A stretch of 64,000 bases of DNA from positions 2,534,501 through 2,598,500 of the forward strand of contig NZ_CP061336.1 in NCBI RefSeq assembly GCF_005473905.2, read 5' to 3'. The stretch is from Ruminiclostridium herbifermentans. Its GTDB lineage: Bacteria > Bacillota > Clostridia > Acetivibrionales > DSM-1351. Shown in pieces: positions 1 to 58,616 of the stretch (positions are counted from its first letter, which is position 1; each line of letters begins with the position of its first letter). A model generated the notes under the pieces. That model was not told the DNA's origin, made no database searches, and saw only the letters and a program-made list of their open reading frames with translations. Position numbers and translations under genes: made by a program.

Positions 1-21
1 ATGTGCATCTACTATTATCAT
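1..21 (-). CDS. First 7 codons of a gene cut by the left window edge
   Basis: An ATG at 21 opens a frame reading MIIVDAH to the edge. It sits 7 bases behind GGAGG inside the recurrent leader motif of this window (see 28-57), which is why I accept a start with so little coding sequence. A VDAH start is seen in some amidohydrolase-fold enzymes such as M19 dipeptidases, but seven residues cannot identify the product. Confidence 0.5.
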
Positions 22-27
22 TTAATA

Positions 28-57
28 AACCTCCACTCCAAATTTTGCACAAAAATT
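28..57 (-). promoter_or_regulatory. Recurrent leader/SD module of the edge gene
   Basis: On the minus strand this reads a T-run, GTGCAAAATTTGGAGTGGAGG and then TTTATTAA before the ATG. It matches the module found before khpA, ylxM, fabF, paaK, the OPT gene and the SOD homologue. Here the usual GCC/GGC arms are replaced by the self-complementary CAAAATTTG. A TATAAT-like string lies directly upstream of the T-run. Confidence 0.5.
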
Positions 58-11737: not shown

Positions 11738-11968
11738 TTATTGTACGATATCTACAACTACTCTTCTGTTGTCCTTAACTGCTGCAGCCTTGACAACAGT
11801 TCTGATAGCTTTGGCAATTCTGCCCTGCTTACCAATTACTTTTCCCATATCATCCTTAGAAACTTTAAGCTCAAGAATAATTGACTTTTCATTTTGAATT
11901 TCATTTACAAAAACTTCTTCTGGATAATCCACAAGGGCTTTTGCAATGTTTTCAAGCAATTCTTTCAT
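11738..11968 (-). CDS. khpA: KH-domain RNA-binding protein KhpA (YlqC)
   Basis: This 76-aa protein is a single KH domain with the GxxG loop in GKVIGKQGRIAKAIRTVVK. KhpA binds RNA, usually with KhpB/Jag, and influences cell division and small RNAs. The start is the ATG at 11968 with GTGGAGG 6 bases upstream; the upstream frame (MPIIGVEVR) is only leader. The gene has its own long leader with the recurrent element described here, although it lies in the rpsP-khpA-rimM order found in Firmicutes. Confidence 0.95.
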   Translation of the reverse strand: MKELLENIAKALVDYPEEVFVNEIQNEKSIILELKVSKDDMGKVIGKQGRIAKAIRTVVKAAAVKDNRRVVVDIVQ

Positions 11969-11970
11969 CC

Positions 11971-12090
11971 TAACCTCCACGCCGATTATCGGCACAAAAA
12001 ATTATGATACTATTGTGGGCAATCCACATCCATCTGTAGCATAATATATTATTTCTATAGGTGGAGAACCTCTACTTTGTAAAGGTACAC
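11971..12090 (-). promoter_or_regulatory. khpA leader: hairpin with anti-SD plus SD stem-loop
   Basis: At 12061-12090 (minus strand) ACCTTT and AGAGGT form a stem with loop ACAAAGT, followed directly by TCTCCAC. At 11971-12003 GCCGAT and ATCGGC form a stem just before GTGGAGG. TCTCCAC can pair with GTGGAGG over 7 positions (one G-U), which would hide the ribosome binding site. The same set of parts occurs before ylxM and paaK. Confidence 0.6.
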
Positions 12091-13949: not shown

Positions 13950-14306
13950 CTATATGTTATTAGCAAGTTCTCTTATTTCCTGCATAACCTGCTCTATAAT
14001 AGCTTTGTTATGAGGACTAAGTTCAGCTAAATTTAACTTTTCCAAATATTTTTGTACTTTTTCAGCCTTTTCCTTTTGCTCACAAAATTTGCTTAGTAAA
14101 CCAAGTTTACTTTCATATTCATTTAATAACGCTCTTCCGCGCTTTTCATTATCATAAACGCCTTGACGGCTAATACCCAGTTGCTCTGCAATCTCAGTCA
14201 AAGTAAAATCATTGTTGTAATGTAAATCCATAATTTCATATTGTCTGTCAGTTAGTAGCTGCCCATAAAAATCAAGCAGCAAAGATATTTCAAATACTTT
14301 ATCCAT
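13950..14306 (-). CDS. ylxM: YlxM family HTH protein, SRP-associated
   Basis: YlxM is a small helix-turn-helix protein co-transcribed with ffh and reported to bind SRP RNA in streptococci. The 118-aa product has the typical sigma-like HTH (LTDRQYEIMDLHYNNDFTLT, then EIAEQLGISRQGVYDNEKRG). I start at 14306, where GTGGAGG is 6 bases upstream, not at the longer upstream frame. A SigA-type promoter at 14443-14471 gives a leader of about 130 bases. Confidence 0.93.
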   Translation of the reverse strand: MDKVFEISLLLDFYGQLLTDRQYEIMDLHYNNDFTLTEIAEQLGISRQGVYDNEKRGRALLNEYESKLGLLSKFCEQKEKAEKVQKYLEKLNLAELSPHNKAIIEQVMQEIRELANNI

Positions 14307-14308
14307 AG

Positions 14309-14382
14309 TAACCTCCACGCTTGCTTTTGTAAGAAAAATAGTCAAACCATATGTGGAGAACCTCTGGCTTTGCAGAAGCACA
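14309..14382 (-). promoter_or_regulatory. ylxM-ffh leader: hairpin with anti-SD plus SD stem-loop
   Basis: At 14353-14382 (minus strand) GCTTCTG and CAGAGGT pair around CAAAGC and are followed by TCTCCAC. At 14309-14338 CTT and AAG replace the usual GCC/GGC arms just before CGTGGAGG, a compensated change. TCTCCAC can pair with GTGGAGG as in khpA. Confidence 0.6.
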
Positions 14383-15254: not shown

Positions 15255-16080
15255 ATTATATTTGCTCCTTTCATTAACTACTGTTAGTTTATTTTGTTAA
15301 TCACAGTATATTATATATTATTTAATCAACTTTCTAACATGAAAGTTTATCGGTACATGAATTTTATCAAAGTTTTATTGCCTTAATAATTCAAAAGTAT
15401 AGTTTATGCATACATGGCGCACTTATACAACTAATTCATTCAAATATTCAAAATTCGAGTTTTCCAATGAAAAGTTTGTCCATACTAAAGATTATTAATA
15501 GCCTGTTACCAAGTTGATAACTTATCTTAAGCATTAAGTATTAATTTATTAGAACTCCGACACATACGATTTAACGCAAAAATTCAATTAATATTCAATT
15601 AATAATAAAAAATATAACATCATAGATAATAAATCATGTACTTTACATCGTTATTTTAATTATTATAGCACTAAGAATTTAACTTTACCATCCTTATATT
15701 TACAGTAATATTATTTATTTACACACTCAAAACTGTTTCAAAACAAATACCAACTCAACTGTAAACTGTTTACATAGTACTCCCTTGCAATATATATTTT
15801 TTTCTTGCTCACGAAATTGATGCTGAAATAATTATTGGTAATAAACAAGCAATAACAAACCATTTATAAATTTGAACACTTATAAACTAAGCTAATTTAA
15901 TAGGTTAAATAGCAACTTATTTTTTACTAATTTGCCCAAAATGCACATGAAACATTGCACGATAGAAATTATTGTGATATTATACTTTATTAGCTAGTAT
16001 TCTTTTGAAACTAGACTTAGGTTTTATTTTCTTTATAATACGACTTATATCCCTTGGGAATAAGAACGGAGGTTGAGTTA
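15255..16080. other. Long AT-rich divergent intergenic region
   Basis: This lies between the minus-strand NYN gene and the plus-strand OPT gene. I see no credible ORF, RNA gene or terminator. Base composition is more AT-rich than the flanking genes. Confidence 0.5.
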
Positions 16081-16378: not shown

Positions 16379-16556
16379 AATTTTGTGCCTAAAGTGGGCG
16401 TAGGAGGTAGCTCGAAACATAGTTTGTTCTAACATGGTGCTTTTTCGAGCTTCAAAAACCACAAGTGGTTTTTGCTAGTGTCGGCATCCTTTAACAATAA
16501 AGAATTACTAGTGTTTAAACAATTTTTTTGCCCAATGTGGCGTGGAGGTTTTTATG
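16379..16556 (+). promoter_or_regulatory. Complex OPT leader with two copies of the SD module
   Basis: Copy 1 (16379-16410) reads TTTTGTGCC, loop, GGGCGTAGGAGG but no start codon follows. It runs into a stem with arms GCTCGAAA (16410-16417) and TTTCGAGC (16443-16450), then a hairpin AAAAACCAC / GTGGTTTTT (16454-16473), which looks like an attenuator. Copy 2 (16521-16553) reads TTTTTTTGCCCAATGTGG then CGTGGAGG and serves the OPT ATG. An orphan SD module plus a terminator-like hairpin suggests a regulatory leader or a duplicated cassette. Confidence 0.5.
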
Positions 16557-35410: not shown

Positions 35411-35527
35411 TATACTCATCTTCACAATTAAATAAAATATTACTTGCAATTATTATCATAGCAAACCATCAGTAAGTTTGAATAGCAATAGAATAAGAAA
35501 ATATATTATAGTTGAATATTAACACAT

Positions 35528-35562
35528 AATTTTATGCCTTTAATGCGGCGTGGGAGGTTATT
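35528..35562 (+). promoter_or_regulatory. Recurrent leader/SD module of the SOD homologue
   Basis: Reads AATTTTATGCC, a loop, then GGCGTGGGAGGTTATT and the ATG. The last 17 bases before the ATG are identical to those before paaK (GGCGTGGGAGGTTATT). Confidence 0.55.
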
Positions 35563-36198
35563 ATGATTCCAATTGGTAAGCATCAGTTACCGCCATTACC
35601 CTACTCATATGACGGATTAGAACCTGTAATAAGTCAGAGAACTTTGAAGTTTCATCATGATAAGCATCACAAAGCCTATGTTGATGGTCTTAACAAAGCT
35701 GAAATAAAGCTTCAAGAGTCTCGTAATCAAAACAACTATGAATTTATTAAATACTGGGAAAATGAAATTGCCTTTAATGGCTCTGGTCATATTCTTCACA
35801 GCATATATTGGACAATTATGGCTCCTATAGGTATGACAGGGCAACCGGGTATACAGACACTTACTCAAATAAATAATTACTTTGGAAGCTTTAATAACTT
35901 CAAAGAACAATTTAAAAATGCTACTGAAAAGGTTGAAGCTTCCGGTTGGGGAATACTTGCTTGGCAGCCTGCATGGATGAGATTAGAAATCCTTCAGGCT
36001 GGAAAACATCAAGATTTGACCCAATGGAGCGCGATACCTATATTGGTTTGTGATGTTTGGGAACATGCATATTATCTGGATTATCAGAATGAACGTAAAA
36101 AGTATATTGAGTCCTGGTGGCGCCTTATAAATTGGTTTGAAGTTGAAAGAAGACTCCAAATGGCCATGAAAGGGCAAGTTCCGTTAGTTATGTATTAG
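35563..36198 (+). CDS. Fe/Mn superoxide dismutase homologue
   Basis: The 211-aa product has all four metal ligands of the Fe/Mn SOD family: His in LKFHHDKHHKAYVDGLN, His in GHILHSIYW, and Asp and His in VCDVWEHAYYLDY. The GNIAWW-like region is replaced by a Trp-rich variant (GWGILAWQPAWMRLEIL), so activity is likely but not certain. Clostridia carry SODs attached to the spore coat, and a coat-like gene lies 152 bases upstream on the same strand. Its start codon sits in the recurrent leader module. Confidence 0.9.
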   Translation: MIPIGKHQLPPLPYSYDGLEPVISQRTLKFHHDKHHKAYVDGLNKAEIKLQESRNQNNYEFIKYWENEIAFNGSGHILHSIYWTIMAPIGMTGQPGIQTLTQINNYFGSFNNFKEQFKNATEKVEASGWGILAWQPAWMRLEILQAGKHQDLTQWSAIPILVCDVWEHAYYLDYQNERKKYIESWWRLINWFEVERRLQMAMKGQVPLVMY

Positions 36199-36394
36199 TA
36201 CTTTATTTAATGTTCAATATTGTTAGAACATAAGCACATTCTATATTCGTCACATACGTTTAGTACTATAGTTAATTTTTAACTAAGTAATCCAACTTTC
36301 CATTGATAAGTTTAACACCTATGATTTTTCTTTTTCAACTGGGAAAGTTTAATAAGTAAGTTATAAATTATACCCATAAAAGCTAACCACATAA

Positions 36395-36437
36395 GCTCGA
36401 AAAAAGACAATGCTTACTAAAAGTCTATTTTTCGAGC
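36395..36437. repeat. Inverted repeat between convergent genes
   Basis: GCTCGAAAAAAGAC pairs with GTCTATTTTTCGAGC (two extra bases). It lies between the ends of the SOD and HD-GYP genes and may terminate both. Its GCTCGAAA/TTTCGAGC ends match the stem in the OPT leader at 16410-16450. The rest of 36199-36590 shows nothing else. Confidence 0.6.
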
Positions 36438-40170: not shown

Positions 40171-41406
40171 CTATTCATATTTTTTCATACATAGAGTAGC
40201 ATTGTGACCACCAAATCCAAGTGCATTTGACAATGCATACTTGATGTCTGCTTTTCTGCCTACATTTGGAACACAATCAATATCACATTCTGGGTCTTGA
40301 TTCTTAACATTTATTGTTGGTGGCAAGAAGCCGTCTTTTAATGCCATTGCTGTAACAATAGCTTCTATTGCTCCCGCAGCACCCAATAGATGACCTGTCA
40401 TGGATTTAGTTGAACTCATTGCAATTTTTTTAGCGTGTTCTCCAAATACACTTTTAACAACCTTGACCTCTGAAGGATCATTTAATGGAGTTGATGTCCC
40501 ATGTGCATTAATATATCCTATATCCTCTGGTTTTATACCAGCATCGTTAATGCTCATTTGCATACTTCTTATTCCACCATCTCCATCAGGATGTGGAGCT
40601 GTAATATGGTATGCATCACAAGTGCAACCATAACCAACAATTTCAGCTATAATATTTGCTCCTCTTTTAACAGCATGCTCATATTCCTCAAGAACAAGTA
40701 TTCCTGCACCTTCTCCACATACAAATCCATCCCTGTCTTTATCAAAAGGTCTTGAAGCTGTGTTTGGATCAGGATTCTTAGACATAGCACCCATAGAACA
40801 GAAACCACCAAAGCCCATAATTGTAATACATGCCTCTGAACCACCTGTTATCATCACATCAGCATCTCCACGCTGAATTACTTTAAATGCATCTCCTATT
40901 GCATTGTTTCCAGTAGCACATGCAGTAACAACACATTCATTAAAGCCTTTAAAACCAAATCTGATAGCTATTTGACCTGAAGCCATATTTGCAATCATCA
41001 TAGGAATAAAGAATGGACTTATTCTTCCAACTCCTTTATTAATATAAACATTATACTGATCCTCAAATGTTTCTATACCACCAATACCAGAGCCTACAAT
41101 CACACCACATCTTTCAAGGTTTACTGCTTCTAAATCTAGCTTAGAAGCTTCAATTGCCATTTTTGATGCAGCAATTGCATATTGATTAAATCTATCCATT
41201 CTTTTTGCTTCTTTTCTGTCCATAAACTGATTAGGATCAAAATCCTTAATCTCTGCAGCTACTTTAGTTGTTAGATTCGAGACATCAATTCTTGTAACTT
41301 CACTTATACCATTTTTACCTTCTTTTATTGAATTCCAAAATTGTTCTGTTCCAATACCTAAAGACGAAACTACACCTGTACCAGTAATAACTACTCGCTT
41401 CTTCAT
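40171..41406 (-). CDS. fabF: 3-oxoacyl-ACP synthase II (KAS II)
   Basis: FabF condenses malonyl-ACP with acyl-ACP. The 411-aa product has the Cys-His-His triad: [12 protein letters not shown] (Cys near 163), [12 protein letters not shown] and [14 protein letters not shown] start at the ATG 41406 with GTGGAGG 7 bases upstream; the 23 extra upstream codons are leader. It is separated from acpP by a terminator and a 320-base leader, so it likely has its own promoter and the recurrent SD module controls it. Confidence 0.97.
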
Positions 41407-41407
41407 A

Positions 41408-41440
41408 ATAACCTCCACGCCCATATTGGGGCACAAGAAT
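41408..41440 (-). promoter_or_regulatory. Recurrent leader/SD module of fabF
   Basis: On the minus strand TTCTTGTGCCCCAATATG then GGCGTGGAGG: arms GCCC and GGGC around CAATAT. A tight palindrome (TATCCCTGCA, TGCAGAGATA) lies upstream near 41481-41502, in the place where khpA, ylxM and paaK have their first hairpin. Confidence 0.55.
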
Positions 41441-41722
41441 TTTGTAAATATTTTAAAATATTTAAAAACATTCATTCAGTATCTCTGCATTGCAGGGATA
41501 ATCACATTTTTATCATCCTAATATTATTTTTATGTGCTATGAGCACAAATAATTGGTAAATACCCTTTTAATATAGGTATATGTTATTATATACATAACT
41601 TTCCATATGAAAATTTATATCTACAACTTAAACTGGACACGTTATGTAATTTATTAATATATCAAAAATTATAGTTATTTTATATAAAAGATTTTATCTC
41701 TGTATTGTATTTCAGATTTAGA
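41441..41722. other. Long fabF leader and promoter region
   Basis: It holds the palindrome near 41481-41502, a GTGCTCATAGCAC hairpin, and TATAAT near 41586 on the minus strand. No ORF. Confidence 0.45.
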
Positions 41723-56982: not shown

Positions 56983-58284
56983 CTAAAGCACTCTTTTGTC
57001 AATTACCCTCTTGGCTTTACCTTCGCTTCGCTGAATAGATTTAGGTTCTACCAGTCTAACCTTTGCACTAATTCCTAAGGTACTCTGAACTTCTTTTGTA
57101 ATCTTTCTTTCAATATCCTCTAGCTTTTTCACTTCATCAGAAAACATTGCTGTTGAAAGTTCAACCTGTATCTCTAACGTGTCTAAATTATCTTTTCTAT
57201 CAACTACCAGCATATAATGTGGAGCAGTTTCTCCAATTGATAGAAGTACACTTTCAACTTGAGAAGGAAATACATTTACTCCTCTAATTATAAGCATGTC
57301 ATCAGTTCTGCCTGTAACCTTACTCATCCTAACCTCTGTACGACCACATTCACAGCGTTCGTAGTTCAATGAAGAAAGGTCCTTTGTTCTATATCTAATC
57401 AATGGTAAGCCTTCTTTAGTTACAGTTGTGAATACTATTTCACCCTTTGAACCTTCAGGTAAAACCTCCTCTGTATCTGGATCAATTATTTCAGGAATAA
57501 AATGATCCTCAGGAATATGCATTCCATTCTGATATTCACATTCACACGCAACACCAGGTCCAATTACTTCACTCAATCCATATATATCAATAGCTTTAAT
57601 TTTTAGTCTATCCTCAATTTCTTTTCTCATACTCTCAGACCATGGTTCAGCACCAAAAATACCAGCCTGAAGCTTTAAATCACTTCTCTTAATGCCTAAT
57701 TCTTCCATTTCCTCTGCAAGATATAAAGCATAAGAAGGAGTACAAGCAATATGTGTTGTTCCAAAATCCTGCATAAGAGATAACTGAAGCTTTGTATTAC
57801 CAGAAGATGTAGGAATTACTGTCGCTCCTACCTTTTCACCACCGTAATGAGCACCAAGTCCTCCAGTAAACAAACCATATCCATAAGAAACCTGTAAGAA
57901 AGATTCTTTAGTAAGTCCAGCACCTGTAAATGTCCTAGCTATAACCTCAGACCAAACTTCAAGGTCTTCTTTAGTATAGCCAACAACTGTTTTCTTACCT
58001 GTTGTTCCAGAAGAAGCATGAATTCTAACTATCTCACTCATTGGTACTGCAAATAGGCCAAAAGGATATGTATCTCTCAAATCTTGCTTGTATGTAAAAG
58101 GTAAATGCTTCAAATCATCCACTGACTTGATATCTCCAGGCAAAATACCTTTTTCATCCATTTTCTTTCTGTAAGTTGGCACATTATTATATACCCTGTT
58201 TACTGTTTTAATGAGTCTCTCTGACTGTACTTTTCTCATTTCGTCTCTGGACATACATTCATATTTTTCATTCCAAAAAGACAT
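56983..58284 (-). CDS. paaK: Phenylacetate-CoA ligase
   Basis: PaaK makes aryl-CoA from aryl acid, ATP and CoA. The 433-aa product has the AMP-binding P-loop [16 protein letters not shown] near 92, [33 protein letters not shown] and [15 protein letters not shown]. Start is ATG 58284 with GGGAGG 6 bases upstream. Downstream is the ACT gene, upstream iorA-iorB, so it would activate aryl acids, or work in reverse on aryl-CoA from IorAB with ATP gain. Its leader carries the recurrent element. Confidence 0.95.
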
Positions 58285-58285
58285 A

Positions 58286-58358
58286 ATAACCTCCCACGCC
58301 ACATTTAGGCTCAAAAATTTTGACTTCAGTGGAGAACCTTTGCTTTGCAAAGATGTGC
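58286..58358 (-). promoter_or_regulatory. paaK leader: hairpin with anti-SD plus SD stem-loop
   Basis: At 58329-58358 (minus) ATCTTTG and CAAAGGT pair around CAAAG and run into TCTCCAC. At 58286-58318 GCC and GGC enclose TAAATGT, then GTGGGAGG. TCTCCAC pairs with GTGGGAGG if one G is bulged. Confidence 0.6.
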
Positions 58359-58616
58359 TATTATTTTTGAAGTTTAATCATAAGACTTAAGCAAAATCCC
58401 CCCAAAGAATTGAATGTTTTTATATTTATATATGTGCCAAACATCCCACCTTGGAATGGCTTTCAGGGTTTACTACATAAAATGAGCCCCACACAAAAGC
58501 AATAGGCCAAAACAATGCATTGCTGGCAAGCCAACAATACATGTTTATTCAAGTACATTTAAACTTAACTGAACATAAAAACTAAACTATAACATTTAAG
58601 TCTATTTTTAATAATA
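58359..58616. other. Intergenic region between iorB and paaK leader
   Basis: No gene. It contains GC-richer spots (GGTGGGATGTTTGG near 58440 on the minus strand) without a clear hairpin. Confidence 0.4.

What the first reader, a model, noticed from the sequence alone, without database searches (positions are those of the whole stretch)
11971..12090. Recurrent 5'-leader module spread over genes of unrelated function
Seen directly: before the starts of khpA, ylxM, fabF, paaK, OPT transporter, SOD homologue and the edge gene there is a T-run, TGTGCC-like arm, loop, then GGCGTGG(G)AGGTT and ATG, with strong identity beyond the SD itself. The arms change together (GCCGAT/ATCGGC in khpA, GCCC/GGGC in fabF, CTT/AAG in ylxM), which argues for RNA structure. 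A normal SD does not explain conservation of GGCGTG. I know of no riboswitch class with these parts. It could be a cis-regulatory RNA or a small mobile leader cassette bringing its own ribosome binding site.
Basis: partly seen in the sequence, partly recalled or inferred. Interest (0 to 1): 0.85.

Follow-up and report, generated by a model that had tools for sequence, protein, structure and literature searches.

The report
Interspersed leader repeat masking ribosome-binding sites
A small folded repeat has multiplied in two sister Clostridia and sits right at the ribosome-binding site of dozens of unrelated genes, often carrying a strand that can cover that site; a comparison of two near-identical genomes catches one copy as a clean insertion.

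Summary
Six of the seven window sites match a covariance model of the leader (edge site 28-57 does not). The genome has at least 136 matches at E<=1 (only 150 candidates were scored). The 127 I examined fall in 78 loci, 18 of them arrays; 69 end at an ATG with an ORF, 62 of these exactly 5 nt after GGAGG; 49 more are followed by another unit. The small hairpin and the arm-SD pairing show compensatory changes, and in silico the SD is less accessible than in other window genes; OPT, SOD and fabF lack a good arm. Copies abound in sister species R. sufflavum, number 18 in a distant MAG, and are 0-2 in nine other congeners. At a lipB-like gene two near-identical genomes differ by 89 nt inside the SD. 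Best reading: a family of small interspersed structured repeats that inserts at SD sites and can mask them. Transposition machinery and regulation are not shown. No Rfam match. New variant of a known kind.

The parts
11966..12086 (-). khpA leader, type B: hairpin S3 (12068-12086), anti-SD arm TCTCCAC (12061-12067), hairpin S4 GCCGA-TAA-TCGGC (11981-11993), SD GTGGAGG (11974-11980), ATG 11966-11968
   Evidence: R1 match 11967-12026 E 4.4e-11; folding gives S3, long-range SD masking and S4, z -2.05, 7 of 200 shuffles as low; KH_KhpA-B domain downstream
14304..14378 (-). ylxM leader, type B: S3-like sequence (by eye), arm TCTCCAC (14353-14359), weak S4 (CTT/AAG), SD GTGGAGG (14312-14318), ATG 14304-14306
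   Evidence: R1 match 14305-14364 E 3.1e-10 (copy used to build R1); minimum-energy fold pairs the arm with the SD but does not form S3, and energy is no lower than shuffles (z 0.06); UPF0122 YlxM
16379..16409 (+). degenerate upstream copy of the core (TTTTGTGCCTAAAGTGGGCGTAGGAGGTAGC), not followed by a start codon
   Evidence: R1 partial match 16379-16399 E 0.013; read directly
16410..16478 (+). S1-S2 hairpin pair GCTCGAAA..TTTTCGAGC / AAAACCAC..GTGGTTTT
   Evidence: model R2, 83.3 bits, E 2.1e-13; this copy is one of the 14 rows used to build R2
16499..16556 (+). OPT transporter leader core: S4 TGCC..GGC, SD GTGGAGG, ATG 16554-16556; no good anti-SD arm
   Evidence: R1 E 4.5e-5; fold z 0.10; OPT family
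35512..35565 (+). Fe/Mn superoxide dismutase homologue leader core, SD GTGGGAGG, ATG 35563-35565; no good arm
   Evidence: R1 E 2.8e-4; fold z -0.64; Sod_Fe_N/C; the R. sufflavum ortholog (86% identical) carries a leader with arm ACCGCCAC
41404..41463 (-). fabF leader core: S4 GCCCC..GGGC, SD GTGGAGG, ATG 41404-41406; no good arm
   Evidence: R1 E 9.5e-5; fold z -1.03; ketoacyl synthase
58282..58360 (-). paaK-like leader, type B: S3 CTTTGC-AAA-GCAAAG, arm TCTCCAC (58329-58335), S4 GCC..GGC, SD GTGGGAGG, ATG 58282-58284
   Evidence: R1 E 9.7e-13 (copy used to build R1); fold forms S3 and pairs part of the SD, z -1.38; AMP-binding enzyme
18..57 (-). weak edge copy: AATTTTTGTGCAAAATTTGGAGTGGAGGTTTATTAAATG before a gene that leaves the window
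   Evidence: read directly; not found by R1 at E<=1

Best explanation
The leader is one member of a family of small interspersed repeats, apparently without protein-coding function, that has spread by insertion at Shine-Dalgarno sites, mainly in the ancestor of two sister Ruminiclostridium species. A copy ends in a short hairpin (S4) followed at once by GTGG(G)AGG-N5-ATG, so the gene keeps an SD at working distance. Many copies carry an arm (ACCTCCAC or TCTCCAC) complementary to that SD and can fold it into a stem (P1), so translation of the host gene is probably lowered or made conditional; pairing of the same arm further upstream (P0/S3), or ribosomes translating across it, would free the SD. 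Copies are modular (P-type with the arm; S-type with hairpins S1-S2) and units multiply in tandem next to the gene. Shown: family, structures, position, clade distribution, one presence/absence polymorphism. Inferred: that spread is by transposition, the machinery, and any effect on translation.
For: Copies: 127 examined matches at 78 loci, 18 arrays, 69 with ATG, 62 at spacing 5. S4 hairpin beyond swapped arms. Arm: >=7 Watson-Crick pairs with the SD (one SD base may be skipped) in 21 of 55 own-genome leaders (0.5 in shuffled segments), 18 of 37 R. sufflavum (0.9), 4 of 4 MAG (0.2; these four were fetched by a pattern that demands the arm), with double changes such as ACCTTCAC/GTGAAGGT, CCCTCCAC/GTGGAGGG, ACCTCCGC/GCGGAGGT and ATCTCCATG/CATGGAGAT in the MAG. 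SD mean unpaired probability 0.33 (n=69) vs 0.49 (n=33 window ORFs), Mann-Whitney p 1.8e-4, start codon 0.41 vs 0.40. S1-S2: 16 of 20 pairs with two-sided changes, covariation 0.302 vs 0.156 shuffled and at most 0.072 slid (alignment fitted to the structure). Distribution: 88 own and 86 R. sufflavum matches (90 candidates scored per genome, so lower bounds), 0-2 in nine congeners; the two rich genomes are sisters, 100/98. Presence/absence: at a lipB-like gene (Pfam LplA-B_cat) G001 has 89 nt more than G008 (97% identical protein) inside the SD AAGGGAGG. The uppS-cdsA gap is 15-69 nt in the nine other congeners (G008 by reading), 267 in R. sufflavum, 811 here. In the MAG 8 of 18 copies have no ORF of 60 aa right behind them.
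Against: Only one empty site was found, and it could be a precise excision; a second locus was not informative. No transposase was searched for; no terminal inverted repeats or clear target duplication were seen. Leaders were mostly found with a model that contains arm and S4, so the share that has them is biased upwards; even so about half of the leaders tested lack a strong arm. Single folds are unremarkable: of six window leaders only khpA has z below -2. 12 of 36 R. sufflavum leader genes are orthologs of leader genes here and kept the leader through long divergence, which also fits host function.
Confidence: 0.6

Rival explanations
1. A host cis-regulatory RNA regulon: the leader is a vertically kept translational switch (for a protein, sRNA, temperature or ribosome supply) used over many housekeeping genes.
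For: Position directly at the start codon (69 of 127; 49 more followed by another unit); compensatory changes in several helices; 12 of 36 shared orthologs; SD masking in silico.
Against: No common function among the genes read or tested; nine congeners have 0-2 copies; arrays of varying unit number; copies without a gene behind them in the MAG; presence/absence at the lipB-like gene.
Confidence: 0.23
2. A uORF coupling device: an SD to the left drives a short ORF starting at the element's AGC-(A/G/T)TG, which runs through the anti-SD arm and stops at the main start codon, opening the masked SD.
For: Of 19 R. sufflavum units picked for having an SD-like stretch and an ATG/GTG/TTG there, 17 stay open for >=14 codons; 7 of the 10 with a gene behind them stop within -12..+15 nt of its ATG, five with an ATGA overlap. 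Several G008, G010 and MAG copies read SD-like stretch - AGC - GTG/TTG/ATG.
Against: Differences by codon position are nearly flat (247/216/269), so no sign of a selected peptide; in the own genome many units have no start codon there (TCG in S1; TTA, CAC, ATT in arrays); copies are not independent.
Confidence: 0.1
3. Ordinary Shine-Dalgarno conservation plus chance.
For: TGGAGG before a start also occurs in leaderless congeners, and the 11-mer with 2 mismatches is not enriched in the window.
Against: Exact 11- and 12-mers 30 vs 1 and 36 vs 0 against reversed controls; hairpin and arm statistics; 0 of 33 other window ORFs with GGCGTGG.
Confidence: 0.02
4. A site-specific recombination array, for example integron-like attC hairpins recombined at GGAG^GTTAGC.
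For: Head-to-tail arrays with a repeated junction GTGGAGGTTAGC and a long stem GCG-TAACCTCCACG/CGTGGAGGTTAGC with one unpaired G (sequences; pairing by eye).
Against: Consensus core boxes (recalled) are not met exactly; left flanks vary; no integrase was sought; no gene-bearing cassette was seen.
Confidence: 0.03

Closest known systems
BOX, RUP and SPRITE repeats of Streptococcus pneumoniae (PMC3049150; abstract and section list seen)
   Same: Small interspersed structured repeats, proliferated in one species, thinner in its close relative and almost absent from others; judged likely to affect co-transcribed genes. BOX is also modular (recalled).
   Different: No sequence comparison was made; the abstract describes neither a fixed distance to start codons nor an arm complementary to the SD.
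TAACTGA direct repeats of marine Beggiatoaceae (PMC4679880; abstract and section list seen)
   Same: Many repeat sets within several nucleotides upstream of start codons of unrelated, partly essential genes; patchy distribution across lineages; translational role proposed.
   Different: Heptamer repeats, not hairpin elements; a section title there says canonical ribosome binding sites are rare, here the copies end in one.
Translational riboswitches and thermometers that mask the SD (recalled)
   Same: Works like them in one respect: an upstream arm can hide the SD.
   Different: No known aptamer, no Rfam match to the window leaders at gathering score or at E<=5, no common regulon seen, copies proliferate.
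MITE and REP/BIME type repeats (recalled)
   Same: Short, hairpin-rich, mosaic, many copies in a genome.
   Different: No terminal inverted repeats or target duplication established; position fixed at SD-ATG.

Membership tests
Known Rfam RNA family | reaches a family's gathering score | tested here: not met
   Window only: just RF01749 pan at 15991-16072; no match over any leader even at E<=5
Small interspersed repeat family (BOX-like) | many dispersed similar copies in one genome | tested here: met
   at least 136 matches at E<=1; 78 loci among the 127 examined
Small interspersed repeat family (BOX-like) | clade-restricted expansion with few copies in relatives | tested here: met
   but 18 copies in one distant MAG
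Small interspersed repeat family (BOX-like) | modular build with repeatable unit | tested here: met
   18 arrays, periods mostly 90-97 nt; S1-S2 arrays
MITE | terminal inverted repeats and target-site duplication | tested here: inconclusive
   one empty site, at most GG shared at the junction; no TIR pair seen by eye at the ends
MITE | parent transposase in the genome | not tested
   no transposase search was made
SD-masking translational regulator | alternative structure hides the SD | tested here: met
   in silico only and not for all copies:
SD-masking translational regulator | a signal changes the structure and expression | not testable with these tools
   needs experiments
Integron attC array | integrase gene and canonical core sites | not tested
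   no integrase search was made; resemblance by eye and from memory only

The most novel reading that the evidence does not exclude
A mobile element that targets translation start sites: it recognises Shine-Dalgarno sequences through its own anti-SD strand, inserts into or beside them, leaves an SD at its 3' end so that the host gene survives, and puts the gene under a masked, possibly uORF-coupled, start. Repeated insertion at the new SD makes the tandem arrays.
Probability: 0.28. Interest if true: 0.9.

Novelty: new variant of a known kind. Interest (0 to 1): 0.72.

Why it matters
If right, dozens of genes of a bacterium, including core ones (lexA, cdsA, uppS, cmk, an rseP-like gene, khpA), had their translation start rebuilt by a repeat that can hide the SD. 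That would be a natural genome-wide experiment on how much start-site masking a cell tolerates, and a repeat whose landing site is the ribosome-binding site itself. The lipB-like pair of alleles makes the effect on translation directly testable.

Tried and rejected
Plain SD conservation: rejected by exact-pattern controls and background starts. A known riboswitch class: no Rfam match in the window and no functional theme seen. Phage carriage: two exact patterns gave 0 matches in viral contigs; plasmid and phage records were not searched. Promoter (-10 like TATAAT before S4) and a sigma-D-like GCCGATAA in khpA: looked at by eye, not consistent between copies, dropped. Second presence/absence test at a G001/G008 permease-like gene: the stretch is shared and G008 has a further insert within it, so it says nothing, and this G001 match may not be a true copy. 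G008 copy L100: G001 gave no match to that protein at E<=1e-20. uORF as conserved peptide: nearly flat codon-position differences. Literature: the listings showed no paper describing this element; these six searches of one open-access library are the only basis for that statement, and only two papers were opened (abstract and section list).

Limits and dropped rows: one search scored 150 of 5246 first-look candidates, one search scored 90 per genome, one search scored 150, only 13, so copy numbers are lower bounds. 9 of the 136 R1 matches (E 0.066-0.964) were not examined further. In one search, 14 of 69 own-genome leaders were left out (left part or SD too short). In one search ORFs were scanned only in fetched stretches, and 4 of the 9 'neither' rows do end in ATG but with an ORF under 60 aa. 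One R. sufflavum row (L202) is an internal unit and contains unread bases. In the tree five congeners had only the uppS part (45% of columns) because my pattern missed their cdsA start. The R. sufflavum gene list comes from 40 fetched stretches plus the pattern loci, not from all its copies. The notebook says 13 shared orthologs; the table shows 12 at 74-95% identity and two more pairs at 34% that I do not count. S1 of the first mixed alignment was out of register between its two forms and was not used for statistics.

Full report
The claim and the place. All seven sequences are where it says. The window is 2534501-2598500 of a one-contig 4.82-Mb genome. Its genus is Ruminiclostridium: genome G003 of the same genus has the contig lengths of R. 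sufflavum DSM 19573. The species is not told; R. herbifermentans would fit from memory but was not tested.

More copies. GCGTGGAGGTT occurs 30 times exactly in the genome against 1 for the reversed pattern, GCGTGGGAGGTT 36 against 0. A covariance model R1 built from 26 copies finds 136 matches at E<=1, with only 150 candidates scored, and six of the seven window sites. I examined 127. They fall in 78 loci, 18 of them arrays of 2-9 units (units at most 260 nt apart; period mostly 90-97 nt). 69 end at a start codon with an ORF of at least 60 aa, all ATG, 62 of them exactly 5 nt behind the SD; 49 of the other 58 are followed within 260 nt by the next unit; 9 are neither. The genes show no common theme: khpA, ylxM, fabF-like, paaK-like, OPT transporter and superoxide dismutase in the window (Pfam); elsewhere Pfam supports lexA, cdsA, uppS, an rseP-like protease, hisH-like amidotransferase, cmk, aroC and ribF; other names (hisC, lspA and more) were read from protein starts only.

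Anatomy. Reading 5' to 3': optional hairpins S1 and S2 (GCTCGAAAA..TTTTCGAGC and AAAACCAC..GTGGTTTT, with forms such as GCGAAG..CTTCGC); then either a hairpin S3 followed by TCTCCAC, or GCGTACCTCCAC; an AT-rich stretch; hairpin S4 (GCC..GGC and variants); GTGG(G)AGG-N5-ATG. The arm ACCTCCAC or TCTCCAC is complementary to the SD. Few copies have all parts.

Structure tests. S4: 86 of 110 leaders form at least 4 bp from their own arms, 68.0 +/- 4.0 with swapped 3' arms, maximum 79 in 500; for at least 5 bp 64 against 48.3 +/- 4.1, maximum 62. Arm-SD pairing: at least 7 Watson-Crick pairs in 21 of 55 own-genome, 18 of 37 R. sufflavum and 4 of 4 MAG leaders, against 0.5, 0.9 and 0.2 in shuffled segments. 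These shares are biased upwards, because the leaders came from a model or, for the MAG, a pattern that contains the arm; the double changes (ACCTTCAC/GTGAAGGT, CCCTCCAC/GTGGAGGG, ACCTCCGC/GCGGAGGT; ATCTCCATG/CATGGAGAT) are less open to that objection. More than half of the own-genome leaders tested lack such a strong arm; by eye OPT, SOD and fabF of the window do. On the first hand-made alignment of 26 rows the covariation signal of S4 and P1 was modest (5 pairs with two-sided changes, 1 of 500 shuffles as high; other measures 7 to 50 of 500). S1-S2 on 87 distinct rows: 16 of 20 pairs change on both sides, 161 cells against 50.6 +/- 5.4 shuffled and at most 33 slid; the alignment was fitted to the structure and paralogs are related, so this leans high. 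The SD is less accessible than in 33 other window ORFs (0.33 vs 0.49 unpaired, p 1.8e-4) while the start codon is not (0.41 vs 0.40); the comparison starts were chosen by a simple SD rule. Single folds of the six window leaders are mostly unremarkable; khpA has z -2.05 and shows S3, S4 and the masked SD.

Distribution. With the same settings 88 matches here and 86 in R. sufflavum (90 candidates scored in each), 2, 1 and 1 in three congeners, 0 in six others, and 1 weak match among 49 further genomes. Among 391 genomes drawn from the class, this genome and R. sufflavum included, 5 have a match at E<=0.001, with 13 candidates scored in each. An exact pattern over 84,980 species genomes gave R. 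sufflavum (18 stretches) and the MAG Clostridiales bacterium GWF2_38_85 (5) only; the window's own genome may be left out of that collection. The MAG has 18 matches at E<=0.1. Two exact patterns had no match in viral contigs. The two rich congeners are sisters (100/98). 12 of 36 R. sufflavum leader genes compared are orthologs of the 73 own-genome leader genes, so many copies predate the split. The S1-S2 model finds 120 copies here, 18 in R. sufflavum, 4 in G010, 2 in G008, none in the other seven of 11 genomes; 29 of 120 have an R1 match within 220 nt downstream, so S1-S2 also travels without it.

Insertion. G001 and G008 are near-identical. At a lipB-like gene (Pfam LplA-B_cat) G008 reads GGGGAAGGGAGGTTGGTATG; G001 carries 89 nt more between GGGGAAG and GGAGGTTGGTATG, with a variant arm and S4. 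So a copy lies inside what is one SD in the sister. Copies of the S-type in G008 and G010 lie, in five of six cases, between two SD-like stretches, the left one followed by GTG or TTG, the right one by the gene's ATG (by reading). Of the 18 MAG copies, 10 have an ORF right behind them; these mostly have an SD-like left flank, the other 8 mostly do not (by reading). In the uppS-cdsA gap the nine other congeners have 15-69 nt, R. sufflavum 267, this genome 811 (the number printed there for G008 is off because its locus was cut, and its sequence shows the same 69 nt as G001).

Working model. Copies land at an SD and leave an SD at their 3' end, so the gene stays readable; whether that SD is the element's or the target's cannot be told from one site. 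The arm makes a masked state possible; upstream pairing (P0 between GGAGGTTAGC and GCGTACCTCC, or S3) or ribosomes passing over the arm make an open state possible. In arrays the complementary segments alternate, so two registers of pairing exist, one with the last SD free and one with it masked. In R. sufflavum, of 19 units picked for an SD and a start codon at the element's 5' end, 17 stay open for 14 codons or more and 7 of 10 with a gene stop near its ATG, which would couple translation; nearly flat codon-position differences give no sign of a selected peptide. All effects on translation are inferred.

Known relatives. The nearest published cases whose abstracts I read are BOX/RUP/SPRITE repeats of pneumococci (PMC3049150) and TAACTGA repeats near starts in Beggiatoaceae (PMC4679880). 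The present family shares the way of spreading with the first and the position with the second, and differs from what those abstracts describe by the anti-SD arm and the exact SD-ATG placement.

Noticed in passing
window 15991-16072 (+): A pan motif (RF01749, 43.2 bits, above gathering) lies about 480 nt upstream of the OPT transporter gene, with the S1-S2 and leader copies in between; whether a pantothenate gene is near was not tested.
   Followed up: no
window 36374-36437 (-): A weak S1-like hairpin (GCTCGAAAA..TTTTCGAGC, E 0.009) without a clear S2 part.
   Followed up: no
own genome 1799833-1800415, 2855240-2856007, 4530133-4530682, 3464235-3464993: S1-S2 hairpins form their own tandem arrays with periods near 65, 100, 160 and 171 nt.
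   Followed up: partly
L236 (G008): An S-type copy sits before a gene of the NifH/frxC family.
   Followed up: partly
L182, L183, L189, L190, L193, L206, L210, L218 and own-genome 1472253, 3347151: A recurrent arm variant ACCGCCAC puts a G opposite A in the middle of the SD stem; one orthologous pair (1472253 and L182) shares it in both species.
   Followed up: partly
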